Assembly (NCBI RefSeq): GCF_009767915.1
Contig: NZ_WSRP01000015.1
Coordinates: 1 to 64,000, forward strand
Direction of reading: 5' to 3'
Origin: Parasutterella muris
GTDB lineage: Bacteria > Pseudomonadota > Gammaproteobacteria > Burkholderiales > Burkholderiaceae_F
Length of the DNA stretch: 64,000 nt
Shown: one piece after another, positions 17,938-38,175 of the stretch
How positions within the stretch are numbered: the first letter of the stretch is position 1
Layout: every line of letters begins with the position of its first letter
Notes under the pieces: model-generated
Databases searched by the model: none
Told to the model about the DNA's origin: nothing
Seen by the model: the letters and a program-made list of their open reading frames with translations, nothing else
Position numbers and translations under genes: made by a program

Positions 17938-17969
17938 TTGACAACTAATTGATTATGATTATCATTTGA
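17938..17969 (+). promoter_or_regulatory. promoter with overlapping Fur box
   Basis: TTGACA (17938-17943), a 16-bp spacer and TATCAT (17960-17965) make a good sigma70 promoter. The 19-mer at 17951-17969 (gattatgattatcatttga) agrees with the Fur consensus GATAATGATAATCATTATC at 14 of 19 positions. It covers the -10, so iron-loaded Fur should block transcription of the HMA gene at 17996. Confidence 0.75.
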
Positions 17970-17995
17970 TAAATATTCAGTCAAATGAGGCGGTT

Positions 17996-18271
17996 ATGTA
18001 TAGAACAACGGTAATCATCGACGGCATGCATTGCCCTATGTGTGAGTCACAAGTTAAGGGCCTGATTAGAAAGCTCTATCCCAATGCCTCTCTTTCTGCC
18101 GCTCATAAAAAAGGACTGCTTAGTATCGAATATCCGTTTATTCCGAGTCAGGCGGAAATTAAGAAAGCTTTGGAATCAGGAGGTTACCAAGTAAAGAGCT
18201 TCAGTACGGAGAAATTTGAGAAAAAGCCGAGTTTGTTCGCAAGACTGTTCCATTCATTTAAAACGGCCTGA
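17996..18271 (+). CDS. heavy-metal-associated (HMA) domain protein, Fur-regulated
   Basis: 91 residues from ATG 17996 behind TGAGGCGG. An in-frame upstream start at 17966 would fall inside the Fur-controlled -10 and is unlikely. The ferredoxin-like HMA fold is seen: YRTTVIIDGMHCPMCESQVKGLIRKLYP, with metal ligands in GMHCPMC (CxxC) and a second half IKKALESGGYQVKSF. A basic tail (FARLFHSFK) follows. Stand-alone HMA proteins usually carry copper or zinc. Control by Fur is odd for copper and hints at a role in iron, haem or metal balance under iron limitation. Confidence 0.82.
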   Translation: MYRTTVIIDGMHCPMCESQVKGLIRKLYPNASLSAAHKKGLLSIEYPFIPSQAEIKKALESGGYQVKSFSTEKFEKKPSLFARLFHSFKTA

Positions 18272-24950: not shown

Positions 24951-25745
24951 CTACTTTCGAATTTTATATCCGATCTGCATTAGGTACGTCGCAAAGCCCG
25001 CGGATAAGATGCCGAAAAAACTGACGATAAAAAGACTGACCCAAGGATTAAAGTCGCTCTGCGAGAAAAATCCATATCGGAACCCGTCAATGATGTAGAA
25101 AAACGGATTGAATCTAGAAAGCGTCTGGAAAATCGGCGGCAGCTGGTGAATCGAGTAAAACACTCCGGAAAGAAATGTCAGCGGCAGAATCACAAAACTC
25201 TGGAACGCTCCGATCTGATCAAATTTGTCTGCCCATAATCCTGCGATCAGTCCGAGAGAACCCATCAGCATCGCGCCCATAAACGCAAAAATTAAAATCC
25301 ATAAAACATGCTGCATGGGAGGCGCTGACCAAAACACCGAAGCCAGCAGCACGCCGCCGCCCACGATCAGCCCTCGCACCACAGAAGCGCCGATCATCGC
25401 AAGAGAAAGCTCCCAGCCGGAAAAGGGCGGAAGCTGAATAAATATCAGACTTCCCATGATCTTCGACGACAGCATCGAAGAGGAACTGTTGCCGAATGCG
25501 TTCTGCAGGAGCGTCATCATGACGAGACCCGGAACTAAAAAGTGCAGATAATTGACGCCGTCAAAGGTCGGCATGCGGCCGGATAAGACCTGACCGAATA
25601 CCGTCAGATACAAAACGCCCATCAGTACCGGCGCAAAAATCGTCTGCAGCGCAATCTTCTTAAACCGCAGTATCTCCTTTTCCAGCAATGTCAGGAAAGA
25701 GGCGCCGGGACGATACGGCTGCGGTTCGATCTTGTATTGGGTCAT
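24951..25745 (-). CDS. ABC-2 type exporter permease
   Basis: A 264-residue inner-membrane protein with six hydrophobic segments. It resembles the YadH group: LLEKEILRFKKIALQTIFAPVLMGVLYLTVFG at the start and NPFFYIIDGFRYGFF near the end. It overlaps the ATPase gene by 4 nt (25742-25745), so the two form one transporter. Such pairs export small molecules, lipids or drugs. Because the operon trails a hutW-type gene by 100 bp, export of a haem breakdown product or haem detoxification is conceivable but unproven. Confidence 0.88.
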   Translation of the reverse strand: MTQYKIEPQPYRPGASFLTLLEKEILRFKKIALQTIFAPVLMGVLYLTVFGQVLSGRMPTFDGVNYLHFLVPGLVMMTLLQNAFGNSSSSMLSSKIMGSLIFIQLPPFSGWELSLAMIGASVVRGLIVGGGVLLASVFWSAPPMQHVLWILIFAFMGAMLMGSLGLIAGLWADKFDQIGAFQSFVILPLTFLSGVFYSIHQLPPIFQTLSRFNPFFYIIDGFRYGFFSQSDFNPWVSLFIVSFFGILSAGFATYLMQIGYKIRK

Positions 25746-26659
25746 TCGTCGGTAATCCTCAAAAATACTTCTTCTAAGTTCGCTTTTCCCAGCTCCAGAC
25801 CTTCGGGCTTGAGGTCGACAGCTTCCAGAGCCTCTAAAAGACGGCGAAGCTCTTCAGGTCCGCTATAGGACATGGAGTAAAACCCGTTAGGGAGCTTCTC
25901 GCAACGGAAGGGAAAATCTTTTGGCAGCGGTGCGGAAAGCGCGAATATCACACGATCTTTGGAATATTCTTTTAAAAGTACCTGTGTATCTTCAAGCGCT
26001 GCGACCTGCCCGTGATTAAGGAGCGCGACTCTTCGGCAAAGCCGCTCGGCTTCCTCCAGGTAATGCGTTGTCAAGATAATCGTGTGCCCCTTGCGGTTGA
26101 GATCTTCCATAAACTCCCAAAGACGGTGACGCAGCGCAATATCAACGCCCGCGGTCGGTTCATCAAGAACAATAAGAGGAGGGCGGTGCACCAGCGCCTG
26201 AGCGATCAGCACGCGACGCTTCATGCCGCCCGAAAGCCGCATCACGCTGTCTTTCTTTTTATCCGAAAGATCGAGAACCTCTAAAAGTTCATCAATCCAT
26301 TTGTTGTTGTCCCTCAGACCAAAGTAGCCGCTCTGCAGCCGCAGCGTCTCATAAACAGACAGGAAGGGATCAAAAGTGATCTCCTGAGGAACAATACCGA
26401 CGCACATTTTAAAGTTTCGCCAGTCCCGATTAATGTCATTGCCAAGAATGGATATTTCTCCGCAATCCGGGTTAACCGTCTTGGCTAATACGCCGATAAG
26501 CGTGCTCTTGCCGGCTCCGTTCGGGCCGAGCAGACCAAAGAAATCTCCTTGTTCGATGGAAAAGGAAATATCGGTCAGAGCTTTTTTCTCACGGCCGCCC
26601 TGATGAAAGGATTTTGAAAGGCCCTTGATACAGAGAGCCGCCGGGTTGCTGGTTGCCAA
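25742..26659 (-). CDS. ABC exporter ATP-binding protein
   Basis: 305 residues in the CcmA/YadG group. Walker [11 protein letters not shown] (about residues 43-52), signature RLSGGMKRR, Walker [13 protein letters not shown] and an H-loop TTHYLEE are all intact. A C-terminal extension (about 80 residues) ends [16 protein letters not shown], as in drug/lipid exporters. It starts at TTG 26659 with GGAGG 7 bp upstream; no better ATG is in frame. It powers the permease encoded next. Confidence 0.9.
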
Positions 26660-26758: not shown

Positions 26759-28222
26759 CTATTTCCTCAGAACGCCGTCAAGCCACGCCTGACCCTGATT
26801 GGGCGAATACACACTCTGCTCAATCAGATCTTCCGTACGCACAGATCCTTTAGAGAGCACTCCTGTCAGCGCTTCCGTGAGAAGCTGCGCCATCGTGACG
26901 TACCAGAACTGACCCGCGACAGTCGGAATAAAGAGATCGTCTTTCTTCTCTAAAAGTCCGGCTCTAATCCATTGATCGGTAACGGGTTTCAGAGGTTTTT
27001 CGATTTCGGCTCCGAACGCTTCTCCGATCGCTTTGAGAGAGAACGGACCGGATTCAACGCTCGAAGCCAGTGTGCGGAGCAGATACCAATTTTCCTGCGG
27101 TTTCATCATCACAAAGACCGGTTTCTGATCTTTCTCAATCATTTCGTTCCACTTGGAAAGTTTGCGTTCCTGCATCCAGCTGTGTCCGCTGAGTTTTCCG
27201 CCCGCGCCACACCCAAACGGCAGACAGTCCATAGAGCCTTTCGCTAACGAGTTGTAGATATTGCGCTCTCTCCGGGTTCTTGCCCAATGCGTGTTGGTAA
27301 GGCGGCGCCAATCGCTGTGCGAGGAAAACACTTCCACGCTGCGCGCAAACATATCGGCGGCTTCCGCAAGCGTTGCAGCGGGCTCCAGCAGCCCCGCCTG
27401 AATTCTCTTATTCAGGGGAGACTTTTCAAACACATTGAGCTGATAGCAGTCGACGCCGTCGATTGGAAGTTCAGAAGCGATCTTCAGATCGTTCTCCCAA
27501 GCAGTGCCTTTTTGTCCGGGGAACCCAAAGAGCAGGTCGATGACGACCGCGGCCTGCTTATTCGCGGCAATTTCTTCGAGTCTGCGGATGACGCGTTCCG
27601 GCGTATCGATGCGCTGCATTTCTTTGCGAATCTTCGCGTCAAAGCTCTGCACGCCGAGAGAAAACCGGGTGACGCCTCCCTCGAGCGACGCTTCGAGCAT
27701 TTCGTCCGTCATGTTATGGACTCGTCCTTCGACAGTAATTTCGCAGTCATCGGAGAGGGGAAGATATTTTTTTGCAGCGATGAGCAGCTCTTTTAATTGT
27801 TGGGGAGGAAGAGCGGTCGGAGTTCCGCCGCCAAAATATAAGGCTTTGATCGGCGCGGAGTCCTGAGCGGGGCGCCCGCTCCAAAGTGCGAATTCGCGAA
27901 TGAGGTTGCGGCAGTAGCGCTCTGATTCTTCCGCGGTCCAGGGATTCTGATAGAACATGCAGAATAAGCAGCGGCTTTCGCAGAAAGGAATATGCACGTA
28001 GGCAAGTGCTTCTTTTCTGCGGGGCTCATGCGACTTCTTCTCCAGATAGTTTCGAGCAGTGCTCCAAAGCATCGGAATACCGAAAGGTCCTGAGTGGACA
28101 GTAGCCTTTGCCGGGAATGCGTGGTGCAGCGCGTCCTCTTCATTGGCAAAGTACGCATCCATATTTTTCTGCTTCATCAGAAGTTTTTTAAATAACTGAA
28201 CTCCGGTTTCAAACGAGGACAT
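26759..28222 (-). CDS. hutW: radical-SAM anaerobic haem-degradation enzyme, paralogue 1
   Basis: 487 residues. Radical-SAM cluster motif CESRCLFC (C81, C85, C88), GGGTPTAL, SLGVQSFD and a HemN-like C-terminal half identify a HutW/ChuW-type enzyme. These open the haem ring without oxygen, giving anaerobilin and free iron. GGAG 7 bp before ATG 28222 supports this start. It carries a longer C-terminus than the paralogue at 29017. It reads away from the shared 800-bp control region and may be co-transcribed with the ABC exporter. Two copies in one locus is unusual; they may act on different tetrapyrroles or form a pair. Confidence 0.88.
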   Translation of the reverse strand: MSSFETGVQLFKKLLMKQKNMDAYFANEEDALHHAFPAKATVHSGPFGIPMLWSTARNYLEKKSHEPRRKEALAYVHIPFCESRCLFCMFYQNPWTAEESERYCRNLIREFALWSGRPAQDSAPIKALYFGGGTPTALPPQQLKELLIAAKKYLPLSDDCEITVEGRVHNMTDEMLEASLEGGVTRFSLGVQSFDAKIRKEMQRIDTPERVIRRLEEIAANKQAAVVIDLLFGFPGQKGTAWENDLKIASELPIDGVDCYQLNVFEKSPLNKRIQAGLLEPAATLAEAADMFARSVEVFSSHSDWRRLTNTHWARTRRERNIYNSLAKGSMDCLPFGCGAGGKLSGHSWMQERKLSKWNEMIEKDQKPVFVMMKPQENWYLLRTLASSVESGPFSLKAIGEAFGAEIEKPLKPVTDQWIRAGLLEKKDDLFIPTVAGQFWYVTMAQLLTEALTGVLSKGSVRTEDLIEQSVYSPNQGQAWLDGVLRK

Positions 28223-28531
28223 CGAGCACTCCTGTTAAAGAAGCCATAAGCCGTCTGATACGGCGGTAATGACCGTTGTTTAATGCTCAGGGACCTTTAT
28301 CAAGGTCCCCAAAAAAAATTTGCATTCGGCAAAGGCGTTTTCCCTCGTAATCTCAGTGAGAGTCTCGGGCCGTACGCGGATTGCCTGACAATTTAGAAAT
28401 TCATTCTAACGAACAAAAATCGATGCAATCGTGTATGAACTTAGGGCGGAAATAGAGCGCTATTTAGTAAAAAAATTGATAAAACAGGAGGTTATAAGAC
28501 ATACGGTTCAATATCTTAGGGAATACGATAA

Positions 28532-28546
28532 TGAGAATTAATCTCA
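28532..28546 (+). promoter_or_regulatory. possible Fur box (leftward hutW side)
   Basis: TGAGAATTAATCTCA fits the 7-1-7 Fur pattern TGATAATnATTATCA at 11 of 14 positions and is flanked by AT-rich sequence. It lies about 310 bp upstream of the leftward hutW start, so its role is uncertain. Confidence 0.45.
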
Positions 28547-28969
28547 ATGATGTAAATAAGTTAAACAGAAAGGCAGAAAATTGTACGTTTTTAATCACTT
28601 TTTCTAAGAATTCCCTAAGCTTGAATCTTTTTAGACGCTGCAAAGGATGGTCTTAGGGCTTTTGCTGAGAACAGGATCAAAATAAAATTATCACGTATAT
28701 ACAATTAGATAAATAAATTTTGTTTTATCCTGAAATGATCCGTTTCTTGGAATAACAGATGTGAAGAAAGAACGTTTGATCACCGGAACAATCGCTTTAG
28801 TTTAAGTTTTATTGGATAAATGTTTCATATTTATCCTTAAAATGTTAATAAAAGTTATATCAAATAATCAAATAGATAAATAGATGATTCGCAAATGCGC
28901 CTGAGGCGGATCAGGGTTTTTGCTAATGAGAATAAGAAGCATTCAAGTAAATTTTTAGAATATGATTTG

Positions 28970-28988
28970 ATAAATGATAATCATTATC
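28970..28988 (+). promoter_or_regulatory. Fur box of the haem operon
   Basis: ataaatgataatcattatc matches the 19-bp Fur consensus at 16 positions and contains the full core ATGATAATCATTATC. It sits 28-46 bp upstream of the ATG of the rightward hutW, where bound Fur would cover the promoter. Iron-replete repression of the whole operon to tonB is the expected result. Confidence 0.88.
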
Positions 28989-29016
28989 GATTGAATATTT
29001 AAGTTTTTGATAAGTT

Positions 29017-30411
29017 ATGAATGCGAAAGAAGAGACGCCTCAGGTGAAACAGAAAACCGTCATCGATTTTCGTAAACCTTTCAACGCGCCGCAGGAACAG
29101 CCTTGGCTGGCCCGCGTTACCGACAACCCGATAACGGATGCTTTCCCGGAATCTATCGATATCCATCCCGGACTCGACGCTTCACCGGTTTTACCGACGG
29201 AACTTCCTTCCGTTCTCAACAGACTGACCGAGCAGCCGAGAAAACGCAGAACCGTTGCATATATCAATGTGCCTTACTGCGAAACACGCTGCCTGTACTG
29301 CCTTTTCTATATCAAGCCTTACCGCACGAAAGAGGAAAGCGCGGCATACGCGGACACCTTAATTAAAGAGATGCAGCTCTGGGCGGATAAACCCGTTCAG
29401 AATAAAGAACCGGTGCACGCCGTCTACTTCGGAGGCGGTACGCCGACCGCGCTCGAAGCATCTGATATTCGACGCGTGCTTGAAGCCGTCAGAAAGTACC
29501 TGCCGCTCGCAAACGATTGCGAAATCACCTACGAAGGCAGATTGTCCGGATTCGGTGACGACAAGATGGAAGCTGCGATCGAAGGCGGAGCAAACCGCTT
29601 CTCGCTCGGCGTGCAGACGTTTGATACCAAAGTGCGTCAGGCGGTCGGTCGCCGCTCTTCTAAAGAAGAACTCATCCAAAGACTCACACGCCTGATGAGC
29701 TATAGCCAGGCCGCTGTCGTGATCGACCTGATATACGGCTTCCCGTATCAAACATTGGAAACCTGGCTTGAAGATCTTCAGATTTCTAAAGATCTGGGTC
29801 TGGATGGAGTTGACTGCTATCAGCTCCGAGTCTTTGAGCGTTCTCCTCTCCACAAATACATCGCCAACGGCAAACTGCCCGCAGGTCCGGATCACGCGAT
29901 GCGCGCGCGTATGTTCCGTGAGGCGGTCTTTCAGATGCGTGAAGCCGGATGGAGCCGCCTTTCAATCAGTCACTGGGCATCCAATACACGCGAAAGAAAT
30001 TTCTATAACTATTACGCTAAAACCCGTACCGACTGTCTCGCTTATGGTCCCGGGGCGGGCGGAGTGATCGACGGATTCAGTTACATGCAGCATCGCGCGC
30101 CTGATGCATGGATAAAGAGCGTCGAAGAGGGCGTAAAGCCGATCGCGATGATGATGCGGCCCTCCAAAAACTGGGAACTGGGTCGAGCGGTTGCCGAGCA
30201 GATGGAGCTGAATTACTTCAACCCCTCTGCGCTTGCAAAAGAATTCTCCCCGCAGCTTAGCAAAGCTTTCGAACCGATCACAGAAAATTGGACGGAAGCC
30301 GGACTGCTGCTGCCGTTTTCTGAAAGATACGAACTGACCGTGGCCGGCCAGTTCTGGCAGGGACGGATGACGCAGCACATTCTCAACCATATCAAAAATA
30401 CCAACTTATGA
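29017..30411 (+). CDS. hutW: radical-SAM anaerobic haem-degradation enzyme, paralogue 2
   Basis: 464 residues. CETRCLYC (C88, C92, C95) binds the [4Fe-4S] cluster; GGGTPTAL, SLGVQTFD and IDLIYGFPYQT follow in the same order as in paralogue 1 (26759-28222). Overall similarity along the length, but with a different N-terminus, marks old divergence. It opens the haem uptake operon: its stop overlaps the receptor start by 4 nt. Expected reaction: SAM-dependent opening of haem to a linear tetrapyrrole with iron release, using electrons from a flavodoxin, which this operon also encodes. Confidence 0.88.
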   Translation: MNAKEETPQVKQKTVIDFRKPFNAPQEQPWLARVTDNPITDAFPESIDIHPGLDASPVLPTELPSVLNRLTEQPRKRRTVAYINVPYCETRCLYCLFYIKPYRTKEESAAYADTLIKEMQLWADKPVQNKEPVHAVYFGGGTPTALEASDIRRVLEAVRKYLPLANDCEITYEGRLSGFGDDKMEAAIEGGANRFSLGVQTFDTKVRQAVGRRSSKEELIQRLTRLMSYSQAAVVIDLIYGFPYQTLETWLEDLQISKDLGLDGVDCYQLRVFERSPLHKYIANGKLPAGPDHAMRARMFREAVFQMREAGWSRLSISHWASNTRERNFYNYYAKTRTDCLAYGPGAGGVIDGFSYMQHRAPDAWIKSVEEGVKPIAMMMRPSKNWELGRAVAEQMELNYFNPSALAKEFSPQLSKAFEPITENWTEAGLLLPFSERYELTVAGQFWQGRMTQHILNHIKNTNL

Positions 30412-32546
30412 CCTCTAAAATCCAAACTATTAAATATTCAGCGGCAGCAGCGGCGCTGATTGCAGCATTTTCCTCGCAGGCCCAGGAAGTTCAGAAAGCG
30501 GCCGAAGTGACCGTAACCGCCGGACGCATAGAGCAGCAGCTCCTAGATGTGCCGATGAGCGTATCGGTGCTCACGCAGGAAGAAATTCGCAATTCTTCTG
30601 CGAGAAATATCGGGGAGCTCCTTTCCGATGTTCCCGGTGTTGAAGTAACCGGCGACGGCTCTCAGGGTTTAAAGCGCGTTCAGATCCGAGGTGAAGACGC
30701 GTTTCGAAGCCTAATCCTTATTGACGGACAGCGTGTCTCGGAACATAAGTCGATGTCCGGCCCGGCGCTTTTAATTGATCCTTCATCGGTTGAACGCATC
30801 GAAGTCATCAAGGGGCCGGCCTCCGTGCTCTATGGCTCAGATGCTATTGGCGGGGTGATTAATATCATCACAAAGAAGGGAGGTAAAAAGCCCTTTGAAG
30901 CAGAAGCTTCTGTCGGCTGGAATGGCGCAGGCCATGGCTGGGAAGAGTCAATTTCTCTCGGCGGAGACTATAAAGGTCTTAAGTACCGACTGAATGCCGG
31001 CTATCAGAGCCACGGCGATATCAAGACGCCGCTTGGATACCAGAACGGAACGGATTTTCGGCAGAAAAACTTAGGTGCTTTCCTGAGCTACGACTTTAAT
31101 GAGCATTTTACTGTCGGCATGAGTGCTGATACCTTTGACTCCGATATTAATTCTTCCAGCTGGGACTATGAGCAGGATCCGGATAATGAATTCTTCGTCC
31201 GTATTCCTAAGTGGAAACGCGATAAAGTCGCGCTCTTTGCCGAAGGCAAAGATCTGACAAGCTATCTCACCCGAGTTCGCTGGGACGGCTTCTGGCAGAA
31301 CAACCATAAGCAAATGCGAAATTACGTCGGAGCCTCGGTTAGAACACCGATGTACAACATGAATGTGGTGACCGATTCCGTCGCAAATAACAAGATTCGT
31401 ACGCTCGGAACAAGTCTGCAGGCGGATTGGCAGCTCGGCGATAACAATACGCTTATCACCGGCTACGAATTTACTCAGGACACGTTAAAGGCTTCAACGG
31501 ATGCCGCCTTCACCCAGAAAATGAAGATGGGTCCCATGACAATGCTGGACACAGACTACGTCACCAACCGTTATGTAGAAGGCAAGGAAATTACTAACGC
31601 CGTGTTCGCCGCCATGGAAACCGAGTTACCCATGGATTTCACAATGAACTACGGTGTGCGCTACACATTCGTGAATTCTAAACTGACCAATGCAAGCGCT
31701 CTGCGCAACGGACACAGAACGACACCCGCGGGAACAACTAATTACGTGAATACCCCCGTGGATGATGCGGGCTCGGTCGGCAGCAACAATGAAAGCCGCC
31801 CGGTCTTCAATTTAGGCTTTATCTGGAAAGGAATTGAAGATACGTCGATTCGCGCTCAGTGGTCTCAGGGCTTCCGTGTCCCGAATCTGCAGGAGAAATT
31901 CCTGATTAACAGTATGGGCGGCGGAACGGTCTACGGCAACCCCAATCTGAAGCCGGAGAAATCCAACAATTTCGAAATCGGTGCACGCTACAGCGGCACT
32001 TATGTCGATGCCGACTTCTCAGTTTTCTATAACCTTGCGGACGACTACATCTCGACAGAAATCCTCAGCGGCTCAGGCTCTGACGTCTATCGCTATGTGA
32101 ATGCTGATAAGGCAAAAACATTCGGTACGGAACTTTCTCTGAACTTCAAGGTTAACGAGTACATCAATCCGTATGCGTTCTTCTCTGTGATCAGAAGAAA
32201 AACAGAGTGGGCAAACGGCGTTTCTACTTATGATTCGGGAACACCTGCCTTTACTGCGCGCTACGGCTTGCGGACCGATGTTCCGCTCTTTAACGGCCGC
32301 TGGACTACAGACACTTATCTGAGAAGTTCGACCGCCAAGAAAACTTACTCGGTTTCGAGCGATGAGACAACGCGTATCGCAGGCTACACCACGTTTAACT
32401 TCGCGACCGCCTATCACTTCGGACCGAAGAAAGCCTACAGCGCTAACTTTGAAGTGCTGAACATTACTAATCAGCTCTACGGCTATGAGACTTCTATTTA
32501 TGAGCCCGGACGCCGTGTGAACTTCAAACTCAGCGCTAAGTACTAA
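30408..32546 (+). CDS. TonB-dependent haem receptor
   Basis: A 712-residue outer-membrane barrel with plug. A signal-peptide-like N-terminus (AAAALIAAFSSQAQ) is followed by a TonB-box-like EVTVTAGR. The plug has PGVEVTGDG, RVQIRGED and VERIEVIKGPASVLYGSDAIGGVINI. The barrel contains FRVPNLQEKF and GNPNLKPE, resembling the FRAP/NPNL boxes of haem receptors, though no His lies between them. It ends in an aromatic-rich beta strand (VNFKLSAKY). Operon position between hutW and the ECF genes supports haem as cargo. NPNLKPE alone is common in other receptors. Confidence 0.88.
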   Translation: MTSKIQTIKYSAAAAALIAAFSSQAQEVQKAAEVTVTAGRIEQQLLDVPMSVSVLTQEEIRNSSARNIGELLSDVPGVEVTGDGSQGLKRVQIRGEDAFRSLILIDGQRVSEHKSMSGPALLIDPSSVERIEVIKGPASVLYGSDAIGGVINIITKKGGKKPFEAEASVGWNGAGHGWEESISLGGDYKGLKYRLNAGYQSHGDIKTPLGYQNGTDFRQKNLGAFLSYDFNEHFTVGMSADTFDSDINSSSWDYEQDPDNEFFVRIPKWKRDKVALFAEGKDLTSYLTRVRWDGFWQNNHKQMRNYVGASVRTPMYNMNVVTDSVANNKIRTLGTSLQADWQLGDNNTLITGYEFTQDTLKASTDAAFTQKMKMGPMTMLDTDYVTNRYVEGKEITNAVFAAMETELPMDFTMNYGVRYTFVNSKLTNASALRNGHRTTPAGTTNYVNTPVDDAGSVGSNNESRPVFNLGFIWKGIEDTSIRAQWSQGFRVPNLQEKFLINSMGGGTVYGNPNLKPEKSNNFEIGARYSGTYVDADFSVFYNLADDYISTEILSGSGSDVYRYVNADKAKTFGTELSLNFKVNEYINPYAFFSVIRRKTEWANGVSTYDSGTPAFTARYGLRTDVPLFNGRWTTDTYLRSSTAKKTYSVSSDETTRIAGYTTFNFATAYHFGPKKAYSANFEVLNITNQLYGYETSIYEPGRRVNFKLSAKY

Positions 32547-32574: not shown

Positions 32575-33159
32575 ATGACTGATGAAATGACGTTAAACGC
32601 CGCGGCAGTCGGCCGTAAAACAAGATTTTCCGACCGCTGGTCCGCTAAAGATCTGGTCGTTATCGGAATCTTTGCGGCTGCCGCCAAAATTTCTACTGTT
32701 TTAATCGCCATGGTGGGAGGAGGGATGAATCCTGTTTCGCTTCTGCTTAAAAACATGGTGTTCACGACACTCTTGGTCGTGATGCTCTTCAAAGTGAAAC
32801 AGAGCGGAACGTTGACGCTCTTTGTGATCGTGAGCACTCTCGTGAATTTCCTTCTTCTCGGAGGAAACATTACGCTTATCGTCCCGATGCTTTTTGCGGC
32901 GCTTCTCAGCGAACTCCTTATGGCCTCGGTACGTAAAGCAGGACTGCCGGGCAGTGTTTACTGGGGCGTCGGCTGCTTTGATCTGATCTGCAAATTCGGC
33001 TCTCTCGGCATTTCATACCTGATGATGCGCGAGTCGCCCTCGCTGATGGCTGTGGTGATCCCGATTGTGATCATCGGCTATGTCGGCTCACTGATCGGTC
33101 TTTGGACCGGCTATCGTTCAACTAAGGAATTAAGACATGCGGGCATCATTCGCTTCTAA
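32575..33159 (+). CDS. ECF transporter S component (substrate-binding)
   Basis: A 194-residue integral membrane protein with about five to six hydrophobic helices (DLVVIGIFAAAAKISTVLIAM, LFVIVSTLVNFLLLG, LTLIVPMLFAALLSELL). It looks like the MptD/Trep_Strep-type S components of energy-coupling-factor importers, whose ligand is set by this subunit. It overlaps the T-component gene by 23 bp. In this operon the ligand is most simply haem or a tetrapyrrole delivered by the upstream receptor. Vitamin- or metal-type ligands cannot be excluded from sequence. Confidence 0.78.
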   Translation: MTDEMTLNAAAVGRKTRFSDRWSAKDLVVIGIFAAAAKISTVLIAMVGGGMNPVSLLLKNMVFTTLLVVMLFKVKQSGTLTLFVIVSTLVNFLLLGGNITLIVPMLFAALLSELLMASVRKAGLPGSVYWGVGCFDLICKFGSLGISYLMMRESPSLMAVVIPIVIIGYVGSLIGLWTGYRSTKELRHAGIIRF

Positions 33160-33910
33160 CCCGACATCTCCGCTCAATCGGATAGACGTGCGCGTCAAAA
33201 TGCTGATCGCGGCCGCTGCCTCGATTATGACGGTGGCGATTTCTTCTGAAGTCGCTCAGTACCTGCTTTTTGCAAGTTCTTTTGTATATCTGCTGTTATT
33301 GAAACGCCCGAAGATTATCGCGGTGAGCTATTGCGTCTGTATTCTGATGATAGCGCTGTCCGTGGGTTTCGGGTATCTGATTTCCATTTGGTTTCCGGCA
33401 ATGGGCAAAAGCATGTCGCTTGCCTCCATGCTGGTTCCGTTTCTTCGCGGTTTTACCATGCTTAACGTGGTGCTTCCGCTTGCTTTTACCGGAAGACTCC
33501 AGACCATTCTCAGCGGACTGCAGAAACTGAGACTGCCGTTTGTGATTTATCTTCCCTCGGCAGTCATCATCCGGTTTATTCCGACGTTTATGAATGACAT
33601 CCGTCAGATTTGGGAGTCGCTTAAAATTCGCGGCTATAAGATCAATCCGTGGACGTGCACCATTCATCCGCTTCAAACCACGCGTCTCTTATTTACGCCG
33701 CTTCTTTTCCGCGCGCTTAAAACCAGCGATGAGCTCGGCATCGCCGCCGAGCTTAAAGGTTTAAATTCCGGCTCTTCCGCGGGAAGGGCGAACGCGGCTT
33801 CGTTCTCGCGGAATGATTACCTGATTATTCTTTTAATCGTCCTGATCTGCGCGGCTGCCGCGGTTCTTCAGTTCTATTTCCCTAACTCCGCGCCGGCGGC
33901 AATGAAGTAA
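33137..33910 (+). CDS. ECF transporter T component (CbiQ-like)
   Basis: A 257-residue transmembrane coupling protein. N-terminal NRIDVRVKMLIAAAASIM is the usual CbiQ-like opening. The coupling helices that contact the ATPases carry ESLKIRGYK and AAELKGL, the positions of the Ala-Arg-Gly motifs, with the second degenerate. It starts at ATG 33137 inside the S gene, with AAGGA 8 bp upstream, and its last base is shared with the ATPase start. This is one complete T subunit for the adjacent S and A components. Confidence 0.85.
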   Translation: MRASFASNPTSPLNRIDVRVKMLIAAAASIMTVAISSEVAQYLLFASSFVYLLLLKRPKIIAVSYCVCILMIALSVGFGYLISIWFPAMGKSMSLASMLVPFLRGFTMLNVVLPLAFTGRLQTILSGLQKLRLPFVIYLPSAVIIRFIPTFMNDIRQIWESLKIRGYKINPWTCTIHPLQTTRLLFTPLLFRALKTSDELGIAAELKGLNSGSSAGRANAASFSRNDYLIILLIVLICAAAAVLQFYFPNSAPAAMK

Positions 33911-35325
33911 TGATTAATTTAGACCATGTTACCTATCAGTATCCTTTCAGCTCGCGCTGCGCGCTTGAGGATATTTCTCTTAATGTCTCTGCGGGAGAAG
34001 TGGTGCTCGTGACCGGTGTTTCTGGCTGCGGCAAATCCACCCTGATTCGGCTTATTAACGGTCTTTGTCCGCATTATTACGGAGGCTCGCTCAAGGGCAG
34101 CGTCAGAGTGTGCGGGAGAGACAATAAAACGGAGAAACTCAGCGACATCTCACATCGGGTCGGAACGCTTTTTCAAAATCCGGAAAGTCAGTTCTTCGCG
34201 CTTGGCGTGGAGGAGGAAATGGCTTTTATGTCTGAGTGCCGGGGCACTGATCCCAACGAAATTGACCGAAAGATCGCTGACGCCGCAAACCGCTTCGGAC
34301 TGAACTCAGTACTGAAGAACACGATTCACGAGCTTTCTCAGGGCCAGAAGCAGAAAGTTGGTTTGGCTTCTCTGATGATGGAACCTTTAAAAGTGCTGAT
34401 TCTGGATGAACCGACCGGAAATCTGGATCCGGAATCGACGGAAGATTTAGCCCGAGAAGTTCAAAAGCTGAAAGAGCAGGGTACCGCGATTCTCGTTGTC
34501 GACCATCGCCTGTATTGGCTCAAGGATGTCGCAGACCGAGTGATTGTTCTTGAAAAGGGAAGAATCATCCGGGCGGGAACGTTTAATGATCTTGATACGG
34601 AATTCCGATCGAAAGTCGGTCTTCGAGAAATCTCCGTCACGGACTGCAGAGATACGCTTCCCGTGCCCATGAGCGCAAGCCACCCGATCCTCAGTGTGCG
34701 GGATCTGACTTTTGAGTATCCCGGAAGGGCTGTCATGCGGCACTTTAATATGGAGCTGCCCAAAGGGATCTGCGGCGTTTTCGGAGAAAACGGCGCGGGT
34801 AAAACCACCTTGGCCCGCCTGCTCACCGGTCTTAATAAAGCCAAGGAAGGATCGTTCGCGATCCGAGGACAAAAACTTAATCAAAAAGAATGCCTCAGGC
34901 ATGTCGCCGTAGTGCTGCAGAATGCCGATCATCAGCTATACATGCGTACGGTTTTTGAAGAACTTCAGACGAGTCTGGAGGCTGCGGGCTGCAAAGGAGG
35001 TTCTCGTGCCGCCGAAGAGTTGCTCGGCTTATTTGATCTGCAGGATCTGAAGGACAGACACCCGCATTCGCTCTCGGGCGGACAAAAGCAGCGACTTGTG
35101 ATCGCCTGTGCTTTTGCCAAAAATCCGGATGTGATTATTCTGGATGAACCGACAAGCGGGCTGGACGGTGCAAATCTGAAACGCATTGCTTCAGCTCTGA
35201 AGAGACTCTCCGACGAAGGCAAGGCGGTACTTGTGATTACGCATGACCTTGAACTGATTCAGATGGTCTGCCAAAGCGCGGTGACCTTGAAAAAACTCCC
35301 GACAACCCAAAACACGATTAATTAA
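33910..35325 (+). CDS. ECF transporter ATPase, fused A1-A2
   Basis: 471 residues with two complete ABC ATPase domains in one chain. Domain 1: Walker A GVSGCGKSTL (about 37-46), signature ELSQGQKQK, Walker B VLILDEPTGNLD. Domain 2: Walker A GENGAGKTTL (about 294-303), signature SLSGGQKQR, Walker B VIILDEPTSGLD. Fusions of the two ECF ATPases occur in group I ECF systems. With its own S and T genes just upstream, this is a dedicated ECF importer. Confidence 0.9.
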   Translation: MINLDHVTYQYPFSSRCALEDISLNVSAGEVVLVTGVSGCGKSTLIRLINGLCPHYYGGSLKGSVRVCGRDNKTEKLSDISHRVGTLFQNPESQFFALGVEEEMAFMSECRGTDPNEIDRKIADAANRFGLNSVLKNTIHELSQGQKQKVGLASLMMEPLKVLILDEPTGNLDPESTEDLAREVQKLKEQGTAILVVDHRLYWLKDVADRVIVLEKGRIIRAGTFNDLDTEFRSKVGLREISVTDCRDTLPVPMSASHPILSVRDLTFEYPGRAVMRHFNMELPKGICGVFGENGAGKTTLARLLTGLNKAKEGSFAIRGQKLNQKECLRHVAVVLQNADHQLYMRTVFEELQTSLEAAGCKGGSRAAEELLGLFDLQDLKDRHPHSLSGGQKQRLVIACAFAKNPDVIILDEPTSGLDGANLKRIASALKRLSDEGKAVLVITHDLELIQMVCQSAVTLKKLPTTQNTIN

Positions 35326-35346
35326 CTTTTTAAATTGGAAAGAAAA

Positions 35347-35850
35347 ATGACAGAAACAGAAAAACAGGCAAAGATTCAGGAAGTGATCCATTCGGGCCGT
35401 CCCGTCACGCTTGACACGCTTGCGGCCGCCATCGGGGCCACTGCGCTTGAGGCCGCGCACGCTCTGCCGGAAGGTATGTGCACTTTCGCGCCGGGCAGCG
35501 ATTTCGAAAAAGTCTGGCAGCGCATCAGTCAGTGGGAAAAGGCGACCTTTATCGTGATCGCAGGCGGGAACGTCATTGAAGTGGAATCCAAGGTCGCGGT
35601 CGGCAAATGTGCCAAGGGCTACTACAACCTGATGGGCGGAAAGGCGCCGCTTCAAGGACACTTTAAGTATGAGAATATTGCGGAGATCGGTTTTGTGACC
35701 ATGCCGTTCATGGGTCGGGAAAGCCATTTTGCCGCCTTCTTTGATAAAGAAGGCCGCTGCGCCTACAGTTTCTATGTCGGCCGTGAAAAACATCAGCTGA
35801 TCGAGTCGGCCAAGGAGCAGTTCCTCGCGCTCCAGGCTGAATACAAATAA
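35347..35850 (+). CDS. hutX: HutX/ChuX-family cytosolic haem carrier
   Basis: About 167 residues from ATG 35347 (MTETEKQAKIQE) behind GGAAAG; the TTG at 35335 is a poorer start. The HutX/ChuX pattern is present: ATALEAAHALPEGMCTFAPGSDFEKVW, FIVIAGGNVIEVESKVAVGKCAKGYYNL and ESHFAAFFDKEGRCAYSFYVGR. The family binds haem in the cytoplasm, and members are linked to the radical-SAM haem-degradation pathway. Its place right after the ECF importer suggests it receives imported haem and passes it to the HutW enzymes. Confidence 0.88.
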   Translation: MTETEKQAKIQEVIHSGRPVTLDTLAAAIGATALEAAHALPEGMCTFAPGSDFEKVWQRISQWEKATFIVIAGGNVIEVESKVAVGKCAKGYYNLMGGKAPLQGHFKYENIAEIGFVTMPFMGRESHFAAFFDKEGRCAYSFYVGREKHQLIESAKEQFLALQAEYK

Positions 35851-35866: not shown

Positions 35867-36367
35867 ATGAAAATCTTGACTGTCTACTCGTCCCTGACAG
35901 GCAACACTGAGAAGATTGCCAAAGCGATTTCCGAAGCGCTGCCGGGTTCGCAGCTGAAGAAACTTCCGACGGATGTTAATCCTCAGGAATATGACCTGAT
36001 CTTCTGCGGATTTTGGTGTGACAAAGGTCATCCGGATGAACTGTGGGAAGAGTTTTTTAAAAACATCGGCTCGGTGCCTACAGCGGTCTTCGGAACGCTT
36101 GGCGGAGATCCTAATAGCGAGCGCGGCCGCGCGTTCGCCTCTAAAGTTTTAGAGCGTATTTCTGCGCCCAACATTCTCGGTCTCAGCTTATGGCAGGGCA
36201 AGGTTGATCCCAAGATTTTGGAAATGATGGCCAAGATGCCGGGCGCAAAACCGATGACGCCGGAGCGTAAGGCAAAACTTGCTGAAGCCGCAAAGCATCC
36301 CACGCCGCAGGATCTCGGCGAAGCTGCCGAATGGGCGCTTTGCATGCGGAAAGCTGTTGAAAAATAA
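35867..36367 (+). CDS. flavodoxin-family electron carrier (BilS/HmuF-like)
   Basis: 166 residues. The FMN phosphate loop is SLTGNTEKIAKAI (residues 9-21). Further flavin contacts are in FCGFWCDKGHPDELWEEFF and FGTLGGDPNSE. The C-terminal third is Lys/Pro-rich. Small flavodoxins of this type are encoded with haem- and bilin-reducing enzymes and donate electrons to radical-SAM enzymes such as ChuW/HmuW. GGAG precedes ATG 35867, 16 bp after hutX. It is the likely reductant for the two HutW paralogues. Confidence 0.85.
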   Translation: MKILTVYSSLTGNTEKIAKAISEALPGSQLKKLPTDVNPQEYDLIFCGFWCDKGHPDELWEEFFKNIGSVPTAVFGTLGGDPNSERGRAFASKVLERISAPNILGLSLWQGKVDPKILEMMAKMPGAKPMTPERKAKLAEAAKHPTPQDLGEAAEWALCMRKAVEK

Positions 36368-36382
36368 TAAAAATCAAGCGTC

Positions 36383-37009
36383 ATGAACTTTACACAGATA
36401 TACGATCTTATCGGATGTGCCGGCGTTGTCCTCTTTATCGTCGGTATCGCGGCGGTGTACATCACCGTCTGGAATATTATTTATTTAAGAGGTGTACTGA
36501 GGAGCTTCAAACAGAGTTTCCGCGGAATGGAAAACACAACCGCGGAACGGATTCGCCGCGCGTACGGCAAGAGCACCAATCCGCTTATCTGTATTGTTCG
36601 CGATGTGGTGACGACGCACGCGGCTCACTCTGAAGATATTCGAGCGGAGGTCGCATATCTGTTTCATAAGAACTTCAAGCCGGTCAACAACGCGCTGACT
36701 TGGCTGAAACTGATTGCCGCGGTTTCCCCGCTGCTCGGACTGCTTGGCACCGTTCTTGGTATGGTTCGTGTATTCAGAGCGATTGCGGAGAACGTTTCTC
36801 CTGATCCGACCATGCTCGCGGCCGGCATTTGGACGGCGCTTGTGACAACAGTCATGGGTCTTGTGGTTGCGATTCCTGCTCTGATGGCCTATTACTATCT
36901 GACGCTGCGCATTAAGGAGCTCAGAATCGAAGCGGTCGAATACAGCTACCGTTCTCTCGAATCCGCAAGGGTCGCGGCTAAGTATGAGGCGGAGCAGGCT
37001 GCAGCCTAG
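36383..37009 (+). CDS. exbB: biopolymer transport protein ExbB
   Basis: A 208-residue inner-membrane proton channel subunit of the TonB motor. Three transmembrane segments: residues about 10-32, 105-130 (LKLIAAVSPLLGLLGTVLGMVRVF, the MotA/TolQ/ExbB signature) and 150-175. Length is typical of short ExbB proteins. It is followed after 9 bp by exbD and then tonB, so the motor is dedicated to the haem receptor in this operon. Confidence 0.92.
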   Translation: MNFTQIYDLIGCAGVVLFIVGIAAVYITVWNIIYLRGVLRSFKQSFRGMENTTAERIRRAYGKSTNPLICIVRDVVTTHAAHSEDIRAEVAYLFHKNFKPVNNALTWLKLIAAVSPLLGLLGTVLGMVRVFRAIAENVSPDPTMLAAGIWTALVTTVMGLVVAIPALMAYYYLTLRIKELRIEAVEYSYRSLESARVAAKYEAEQAAA

Positions 37010-37018
37010 GAGCACCGG

Positions 37019-37411
37019 ATGTTTGATGAATTCGATGAAGAACCCAGAATCGACCTGACGCCTCTGATTGACGTGATTTTCATGCTGGTGATTTTCTTTG
37101 TCATGACGATGACGTTCAGCAAACCGGTGCTCGACCTTGTGCTTCCGTCCGCGGACAATTCGGTTGTGCGCAAGAAAGAGGCCGAGCTGGTATTAAATGT
37201 TAAATCCGACGGGTCGATTTATCACGAAGGCGTTCTTGTCACGAAAGAGGATCTGCCGCAGTTCCTCGACGAACACCCGGACGGGATGCTGAACCTTATG
37301 ATTGACGAGAAGGCGCCCTTCGAGTCATTCGTTTCTATTGTTGATGTGGCAAAGCACAAGCGAGGGGGCCGCTTTGTCATCAGCACCAGAGCCGCGGAGT
37401 CGGTTAAATGA
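37019..37411 (+). CDS. exbD: biopolymer transport protein ExbD
   Basis: 130 residues: a cytoplasmic stub, one membrane anchor (LTPLIDVIFMLVIFFVMTMTF, with the conserved membrane Asp in LIDV) and a periplasmic domain. GGAG lies 7 bp before ATG 37019. The stop overlaps the tonB start by 4 nt (ATGA), showing translational coupling. It is the proton-path partner of ExbB. Confidence 0.92.
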   Translation: MFDEFDEEPRIDLTPLIDVIFMLVIFFVMTMTFSKPVLDLVLPSADNSVVRKKEAELVLNVKSDGSIYHEGVLVTKEDLPQFLDEHPDGMLNLMIDEKAPFESFVSIVDVAKHKRGGRFVISTRAAESVK

Positions 37412-38175
37412 GATCAGTGCCGCGGGAGGATAAAAATGTCCGCAAAGCCAAACGAATTGCAAAGGTCTTAGTTCTTTGCGCGCTGGTGCTTCTTTTTTTA
37501 TGGCTGATCAGAGGGCATAAGGAGGATACAGTTGTTCCGGTTCAGCCGATGCAGCTGATTGAGCTTTCCTTTGAGCAGTTTGTGCCTCCGCAGCCGACGG
37601 CCGCGCCTCAGCCGGAAGAAAACCGGCTGCTAGCGGAGGACTCAGATATAAAAACCGCTCCGGAACCGGAGCCTAAACCCGAACCTGAACCGGAACCCGT
37701 CAAGGAACCTGAGCCGATACGCGAACCGGTAAAACCGCCGGAACCGGTGAAGCCGGAGCCCGTGAAGCCTAAAAAGGCAGTGAAAAAAGAAATTCAAAAG
37801 ACAGTTAAGAAGACTGTGACTCAGGCTCCTCCTACTCAGTCGACGTCCGCAGCTAAAACCGAAGGCAATGAGAGTGTCAATGAGTTTAAAACCCGCAACA
37901 CCATTGCTTCTATGCTGGTAGCGCTCGTGGAAAAGCGCAAACGTTACCCGAAAGCGGCGAGAAGGGCCGCGATGGAAGGCGTGACGGAGGTTCTTTTTAT
38001 CGTCGATAAAACCGGGAAGATAACGGCCGCTTCAGTGAGCAAGGCGAGTGGAAAAGGCCCTCTGGACCGCGAATGCGAGAGTTTGGCCGCCCGTCTCGTC
38101 GGCACTGAGCTTGGCGTACTTAATCCAGGCCTAAAGCTTACCGTTCCGATTCGTTTCACACTGAGCGACAGTTAA
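37408..38175 (+). CDS. tonB: TonB energy transducer
   Basis: 255 residues. A single N-terminal anchor (KVLVLCALVLLFLWLI) is followed by a periplasm-spanning Pro-rich arm with Glu-Pro and Lys-Pro repeats (about 88-130). The C-terminal TonB domain includes RYPKAARRAAMEGVTEVLFIVDKTGKI and ends VPIRFTLSDS. It carries the proton-motive force from ExbBD to the haem receptor. It is the last gene of the long operon that starts at the Fur-boxed hutW. Confidence 0.92.
   Translation: MRSVPREDKNVRKAKRIAKVLVLCALVLLFLWLIRGHKEDTVVPVQPMQLIELSFEQFVPPQPTAAPQPEENRLLAEDSDIKTAPEPEPKPEPEPEPVKEPEPIREPVKPPEPVKPEPVKPKKAVKKEIQKTVKKTVTQAPPTQSTSAAKTEGNESVNEFKTRNTIASMLVALVEKRKRYPKAARRAAMEGVTEVLFIVDKTGKITAASVSKASGKGPLDRECESLAARLVGTELGVLNPGLKLTVPIRFTLSDS

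What the first reader, a model, noticed from the sequence alone, without database searches (positions are those of the whole stretch)
26759..30411. Two divergent HutW/ChuW radical-SAM paralogues sharing one control region
Both proteins have intact CxxxCxxC motifs (CESRCLFC and CETRCLYC) and the same motif order, but differ at N- and C-termini. Most haem-degrading loci carry one such enzyme. Duplication within one locus suggests split substrates (haem versus another porphyrin or linear intermediate), sequential steps, or one acting as a haem chaperone.
Basis: partly seen in the sequence, partly recalled or inferred. Interest (0 to 1): 0.65.

Follow-up and report, generated by a model that had tools for sequence, protein, structure and literature searches.

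The report
Two old haem-opening enzymes side by side
A gut bacterium carries two distantly related copies of a known enzyme that breaks open haem without oxygen to release its iron; both copies look intact, but having them next to each other is peculiar to this genome, so this is an unusual arrangement of a known system rather than a new one.

Summary
ChuW-A (26759-28222, minus, 487 aa) and ChuW-B (29017-30411, plus, 464 aa) both pass the curated ChuW/HutW model (482 and 492 bits, cut-off 400), keep the CxxxCxxC cluster and every column invariant in the family sample, and fold like HemN. They are 44% identical. They are not a recent duplication: A and B form separate, well-supported clades within the Sutterella-like family, and grouping them as sisters is rejected (p-AU 0.0014). 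B heads a haem-uptake operon (TonB receptor, ECF importer, HutX, HmuF/FldH-like flavodoxin, ExbBD-TonB) whose order is kept in relatives. A-type genes occur in seven other genomes of the family, never seen next to the haem operon; in a same-genus relative A lies about 41 kb away. The adjacency is therefore lineage-specific, probably from A moving in between the operon and a conserved ABC exporter. The spacer is 794 bp with two Fur-like boxes, each over a promoter-like site facing one gene, so 'one shared control region' is an overstatement. Most likely both are anaerobilin synthases acting as isozymes. A split in substrate is possible but unsupported; a HemW-like chaperone role for one is unlikely.

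The parts
26759..28222 (-). ChuW-A: ChuW/HutW radical SAM methyltransferase, orphan-type clade (CESRCLFC)
   Evidence: TIGR04107 482.4 bits vs cut-off 400; A clade of 8 rows, support 100/100; AlphaFold2 pLDDT 91.3, best PDB match HemN 1olt
29017..30411 (+). ChuW-B: ChuW/HutW radical SAM methyltransferase heading the haem operon (CETRCLYC)
   Evidence: TIGR04107 492.3 bits; B clade of 6 rows, support 100/99; pLDDT 92.4, best PDB match 1olt; overlaps the start of the receptor gene by 4 bases
28970..28991 (+). Fur-like box in front of ChuW-B, overlapping a promoter-like site 28954-28981
   Evidence: 16 of 19 matches to GATAATGATAATCATTATC; a box of 16 or more also lies in front of ChuW-B in L124, L128 and L051, 0 of 100 shuffles of each as good
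28527..28545 (-). Second Fur-like box, on the ChuW-A side, overlapping a promoter-like site 28556-28528 facing ChuW-A
   Evidence: 15 of 19 matches; 0.5% of shuffles of the A-proximal part as good
25742..26659 (-). ABC exporter ATPase, downstream of ChuW-A
   Evidence: ABC ATPase of DrrA type; directly divergent from ChuW-B in L124, L128, L051
24951..25745 (-). ABC-2 type exporter permease
   Evidence: NF011648 201.9 bits, just under its cut-off of 225; 80-87% identical and in the same place in relatives
30408..32546 (+). TonB-dependent haem receptor
   Evidence: Best matches are the haem receptor models TIGR01786/TIGR01785, E about 1e-66, though under their cut-offs
32575..33159 (+). ECF-type importer S component (Trep_Strep)
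   Evidence: PF09605 over cut-off; conserved position in relatives
33137..33910 (+). ECF T component
   Evidence: PF02361 CbiQ
33910..35325 (+). ECF ATPase, two domains
   Evidence: TIGR04520 over cut-off, two stretches
35335..35850 (+). HutX cytosolic haem carrier
   Evidence: TIGR04108 141.6 bits vs cut-off 110; single copy in the genome
35867..36367 (+). HmuF/FldH-like haem flavodoxin
   Evidence: PF12641; PDB 8g64 at E 1.9e-9, conserved A-H-P-D linker, His134 replaced
36383..37009 (+). ExbB
   Evidence: Named from sequence and place in the operon; conserved in relatives
37019..37411 (+). ExbD
   Evidence: As for ExbB
37408..38175 (+). TonB
   Evidence: As for ExbB

Best explanation
Both genes encode working anaerobilin synthases (class C radical SAM methyltransferases that add a SAM-derived methylene to a haem meso carbon, open the ring and release iron). 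ChuW-B is the core enzyme of the haem operon and receives haem through the receptor, ECF importer, HutX and the HmuF-like flavodoxin. ChuW-A is an old accessory isozyme of the family that is normally encoded elsewhere and in this lineage came to lie between the operon and its ABC exporter. The pair most likely gives higher or differently tuned capacity (expression, electron donor, turnover) for the same reaction, each from its own Fur-type promoter in a long divergent spacer. Shown: family membership, retained catalytic residues, predicted fold, gene context, separate ancestry. Inferred: activity, substrate, regulation, and the direction of A's move.
For: Both pass the ChuW/HutW equivalog model by more than 80 bits and fall far below the HemN and HemW cut-offs. 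All columns invariant across 34 ChuW proteins of several phyla are kept in both. Separate HemN (572 bits), HemW (336 bits) and ferrochelatase exist in the genome, so neither copy is needed for those jobs. Amino-acid change is low against saturated synonymous change in both (dN 0.22-0.24 with pS about 0.8 between window and relatives), so both are under purifying selection. A-type genes co-occur with an operon-type ChuW in six genomes. One HutX in each genome that has one fits a single shared haem supply. Fur-like boxes face both genes.
Against: I found no assay of any Sutterella-family ChuW. The A/B split is old enough (44% identity, 20 fixed alignment differences counting gaps) that function could have diverged. 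The B clade has Asn where nearly all others have His, four residues before the first cluster Cys, and mostly Tyr for Phe next to that Cys. The window is a draft contig, so the adjacency rests on one assembly.
Confidence: 0.62

Rival explanations
1. Split substrates: B opens imported haem, A opens another metalloporphyrin or recycles endogenous haem, which would explain A's usual life as an orphan gene.
For: A is an orphan without conserved neighbours in seven genomes; fixed differences lie near the cluster (H77/N84, Q92/I99, N93/K100) and in other conserved columns (N263/R271, N310/I317). A comparable monocistronic, Fur-independent enzyme is known in Enterococcus faecalis (PMC12077173), although it acts on haem.
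Against: At most of these fixed differences A has the residue of the operon-type ChuW of Sutterella and Duodenibacillus, so A looks ordinary and B is the changed one. No invariant residue is altered in either.
Confidence: 0.17
2. B is a weakened enzyme in this lineage and A is kept, or was brought next to the operon, to make up for it.
For: The B clade replaces a near-universal His by Asn, and in five of six rows Phe by Tyr, in the cluster segment. In Turicimonas muris the B gene has an in-frame TGA while A is intact. That stop is not explained by selenocysteine: the tRNA-Sec hits are tRNA-Ser.
Against: Three genomes (G045, G046, G064) have only a B-type enzyme over the cut-off, with HutX and the ECF S component. 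The same Asn occurs in single-copy L028 and in L054. The T. muris stop rests on one assembly.
Confidence: 0.13
3. One copy is a haem chaperone of HemW type rather than an enzyme.
For: HemW and ChuW are related families; a diverged ChuW-like type with lost SAM-site residues does exist in Sutterella.
Against: Both window copies keep all catalytic columns, score far below the HemW cut-off (143 and 142 bits vs 205.4), and the genome has a true HemW.
Confidence: 0.03
4. The adjacency is an assembly artefact: A and B are separate genes in this genome too.
For: Draft genome of 135 contigs; in relatives the genes are apart.
Against: The A-proximal spacer is unique in the genome and the region contains no long repeat at which contigs would be misjoined.
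Confidence: 0.04

Closest known systems
ChuW (Escherichia coli O157:H7) / HutW (Vibrio cholerae), NCBIfam TIGR04107
   Same: Same protein family over full length, same cluster and SAM-site residues, next to haem uptake genes and HutX; Fur-type boxes
   Different: E. coli has one copy, with ChuY as anaerobilin reductase; here two copies, no ChuY seen in the locus, an HmuF-like flavodoxin and an ECF importer in place of ChuTU-HmuV
HmuW-HmuF of Fusobacterium nucleatum (PMC10404700)
   Same: Anaerobilin synthase together with a haem-binding flavodoxin of the FldH/HmuF kind in one uptake operon
   Different: Fusobacterial and Campylobacter relatives form a distant branch; the window flavodoxin lacks the His134 haem ligand, as do some Campylobacter and Leptotrichia homologues according to that paper
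HemN (1olt)
   Same: Fold and cluster motif; best structural match of both models
   Different: Only 20% identity in the structural alignment; falls outside the ChuW clade; the genome has its own HemN

Membership tests
ChuW/HutW anaerobilin synthase (TIGR04107) | Full-length match over the curated cut-off of 400 bits | tested here: met
   482.4 (A) and 492.3 (B) bits, model positions 2-418 of 419
ChuW/HutW anaerobilin synthase (TIGR04107) | CxxxCxxC cluster, GGGTP, and other residues invariant across the family | tested here: met
   All invariant columns of a 34-protein alignment kept in both
ChuW/HutW anaerobilin synthase (TIGR04107) | Phylogenetic position inside ChuW/HutW, apart from HemN | tested here: met
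   Trees of 74 and 54 rows
ChuW/HutW anaerobilin synthase (TIGR04107) | SAM-dependent anaerobic conversion of haem to anaerobilin with iron release | not testable with these tools
   Needs an anaerobic assay
HemN | Match over TIGR00538 cut-off (324.95 bits) | tested here: not met
   116.9 and 141.3 bits
HemW | Match over TIGR00539 cut-off (205.4 bits) | tested here: not met
   143.1 and 141.9 bits
Recent tandem duplication | A and B are each other's closest relatives | tested here: not met
   A+B clade 50.8 log units worse, p-AU 0.0014
HmuF/FldH flavodoxin (35867-36367) | Flavodoxin with haem-binding cap and axial His134 | tested here: inconclusive
   Matches FldH 8g64 over residues 1-149 and keeps the Ala-His-Pro-Asp linker, but His134 aligns with Lys

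The most novel reading that the evidence does not exclude
The A clade is a separate functional subfamily of anaerobilin synthases, specialised for a different tetrapyrrole or for endogenous haem turnover, and this genome has linked the two activities in one locus.
Probability: 0.12. Interest if true: 0.6.

Novelty: new member of a known kind. Interest (0 to 1): 0.33.

Why it matters
Anaerobic haem opening has been studied in organisms described with a single ChuW-type enzyme. The Sutterella-like gut commensals hold up to three ChuW-type lineages between them, often two in one genome, which gives natural pairs for asking what limits this reaction (electron donor, carrier, product) and whether the family has more than one substrate. 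Taken alone, the window finding is an unusual gene arrangement of a known system.

Tried and rejected
Recent duplication: rejected by tree and AU test. Selenocysteine at the T. muris in-frame TGA: the tRNA-Sec hits just over threshold are tRNA-Ser by ARAGORN. Rfam families in the locus and in the spacer: none. Insertion-sequence traces around ChuW-A: no long repeats, A-proximal spacer unique in the genome. Conserved partner genes of orphan A copies: none found; neighbours differ in each genome. Timing by synonymous change: saturated, so no dating. Literature on duplicated chuW/hutW in one genome: no relevant open-access paper found. The mutational papers on ChuW and HutW (PMC7189753, PMC8672366) are not held.

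Full report
Observation. They are 44% identical over 419 residues, carry CESRCLFC and CETRCLYC, and align nearly end to end. Both exceed the curated ChuW/HutW cut-off of 400 bits (482.4 and 492.3) and lie far below the HemN and HemW cut-offs. AlphaFold2 models are confident (mean pLDDT 91.3 and 92.4) and for both the best solved structure is E. coli HemN, 1olt. The PDB holds no ChuW by sequence; HemN and NocN are the only matches.

Catalytic residues. In an alignment of ChuW proteins from several phyla every invariant column is kept in both copies. Fixed differences between the A and B clades are few (20 alignment positions, gaps counted), and at most of them A has the state of the ordinary operon-type enzymes while B is changed. 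The most striking is Asn84 in B for a His found in nearly all others, four residues before the first cluster Cys. It corresponds to His58 of HemN by alignment; that this His is essential in HemN is my recollection, not tested here. The same Asn occurs in one single-copy relative (L028) and in L054, so it seems tolerated.

Ancestry. Trees of 74 and 54 proteins put A with seven orphan-type copies from other genomes of the same family (support 100/100), and B with five operon-type copies (100/99). A nests with the operon-type enzymes of Sutterella and Duodenibacillus; B branches outside. Forcing A and B together costs 50.8 log units (p-AU 0.0014); the two groups were named after a first tree had been seen, so the p-value is somewhat generous. 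They are therefore old paralogues, or a paralogue plus a gene from a relative, not a local tandem duplication. The A genes of G049 and Turicimonas muris are 88% identical although the other haem-locus genes compared are 65-80% between those two, which hints at transfer of A or unequal rates; saturated synonymous change prevents a decision.

Copy number. In E. coli 2192 of 5426 genomes have a match and none has two places. In a sample of 398 genomes of the phylum 14 carry ChuW and only this genome has two over the cut-off; in 300 genomes of the order the same holds (which did not draw the other two-copy members of the family). In the family, 22 of 67 genomes carry an over-cut-off copy and six carry two. 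Three further Sutterella genomes carry a diverged third type.

Context. B heads an operon: TonB haem receptor, ECF S, T and A components, HutX, a flavodoxin, ExbB, ExbD, TonB. The order is kept in L124, L128 and L051, where a two-gene ABC exporter lies directly divergent from B. In the window ChuW-A lies between exporter and B, on the exporter's strand. In the same-genus relative G049, A lies about 41 kb from B; in the other genomes A is on another contig, with neighbours that differ from genome to genome. HutX is single in every genome of the twelve examined that has it. The flavodoxin matches F. nucleatum FldH, 8g64, at 1.9e-9 and keeps the Ala-His-Pro-Asp linker described for that group, but not the haem ligand His134. 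PMC10404700 shows that HmuF/FldH hand haem to HmuW and then reduce anaerobilin, and notes homologues without His134. A HmuF-like role for the window protein is inferred.

Control region. The spacer is 794 bp. A Fur-like box (16 of 19) begins at 28970, about 30-47 bp before B, with a box as good or better in front of B in three relatives (0 of 100 shuffles as good). A second (15 of 19) begins at 28527, about 300 bp before A. Each overlaps a promoter-like hexamer pair facing its own gene; promoter-like hits as such are no more frequent than in shuffles, and the shuffles used for the Fur boxes keep base composition only. Two iron-responsive promoters in a long divergent spacer is the most economical reading. 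The relatives' spacers (about 0.2-0.4 kb) align mainly with the B-proximal part, so the A-proximal stretch probably arrived with A.

Mechanism. From published work on ChuW, HutW and HmuW (PMC10035031, PMC10404700, PMC12670364) the family reaction is SAM-radical methylation of a haem meso carbon, ring opening and iron release. Nothing in either sequence argues against that reaction. I take the pair as isozymes (0.62), with split substrates (0.17) and a weakened B (0.13) as rivals. Functional steps are inferred, not shown.

Verdict.

Noticed in passing
L133:2364-3929, L134:9725-11194, L135:15909-17315 (Sutterella-type genomes G051, G061, G054): A third ChuW-like type with CxxxCxGCGC at the cluster (HemN-like CGC) and loss of several otherwise invariant ChuW residues (Tyr75, Thr163, Glu165, Gln192, Asp229, His312 in ChuW-A numbering); 270-300 bits, under the ChuW cut-off. 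Candidate non-catalytic or re-purposed haem protein on the same contig as the main ChuW; perhaps more novel than the window pair.
   Followed up: partly
L128:9423-10811 (Turicimonas muris ChuW-B): In-frame TGA in place of the Cys codon of NDCEIT in the B gene, A gene intact on another contig; no tRNA-Sec found. Either a real nonsense mutation or an assembly error.
   Followed up: partly
28223-28525, minus strand: The presumed ChuW-A leader folds better than shuffles (z -3.0); the predicted fold pairs the ribosome-binding site with an upstream CCUCCUGUU and holds a strong hairpin after a run of U. No relatives with this leader were found to test it.
   Followed up: partly
24951-26659: ABC-2 exporter conserved next to the haem operon in the family; possible exporter of anaerobilin or excess haem, untested.
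   Followed up: no
32575-35325: An ECF-type importer, not a ChuTU-HmuV type ABC importer, is the only candidate inner-membrane haem importer seen in the operon.
   Followed up: no
about 41061-64000: Phage-like genes to the right of the haem locus by inspection of the translations (integrase, methyltransferase, terminase, portal, capsid): probably a prophage.
   Followed up: no
17948-17966: A further Fur-like site just before a small heavy-metal-associated domain protein (17966-18271).
   Followed up: no
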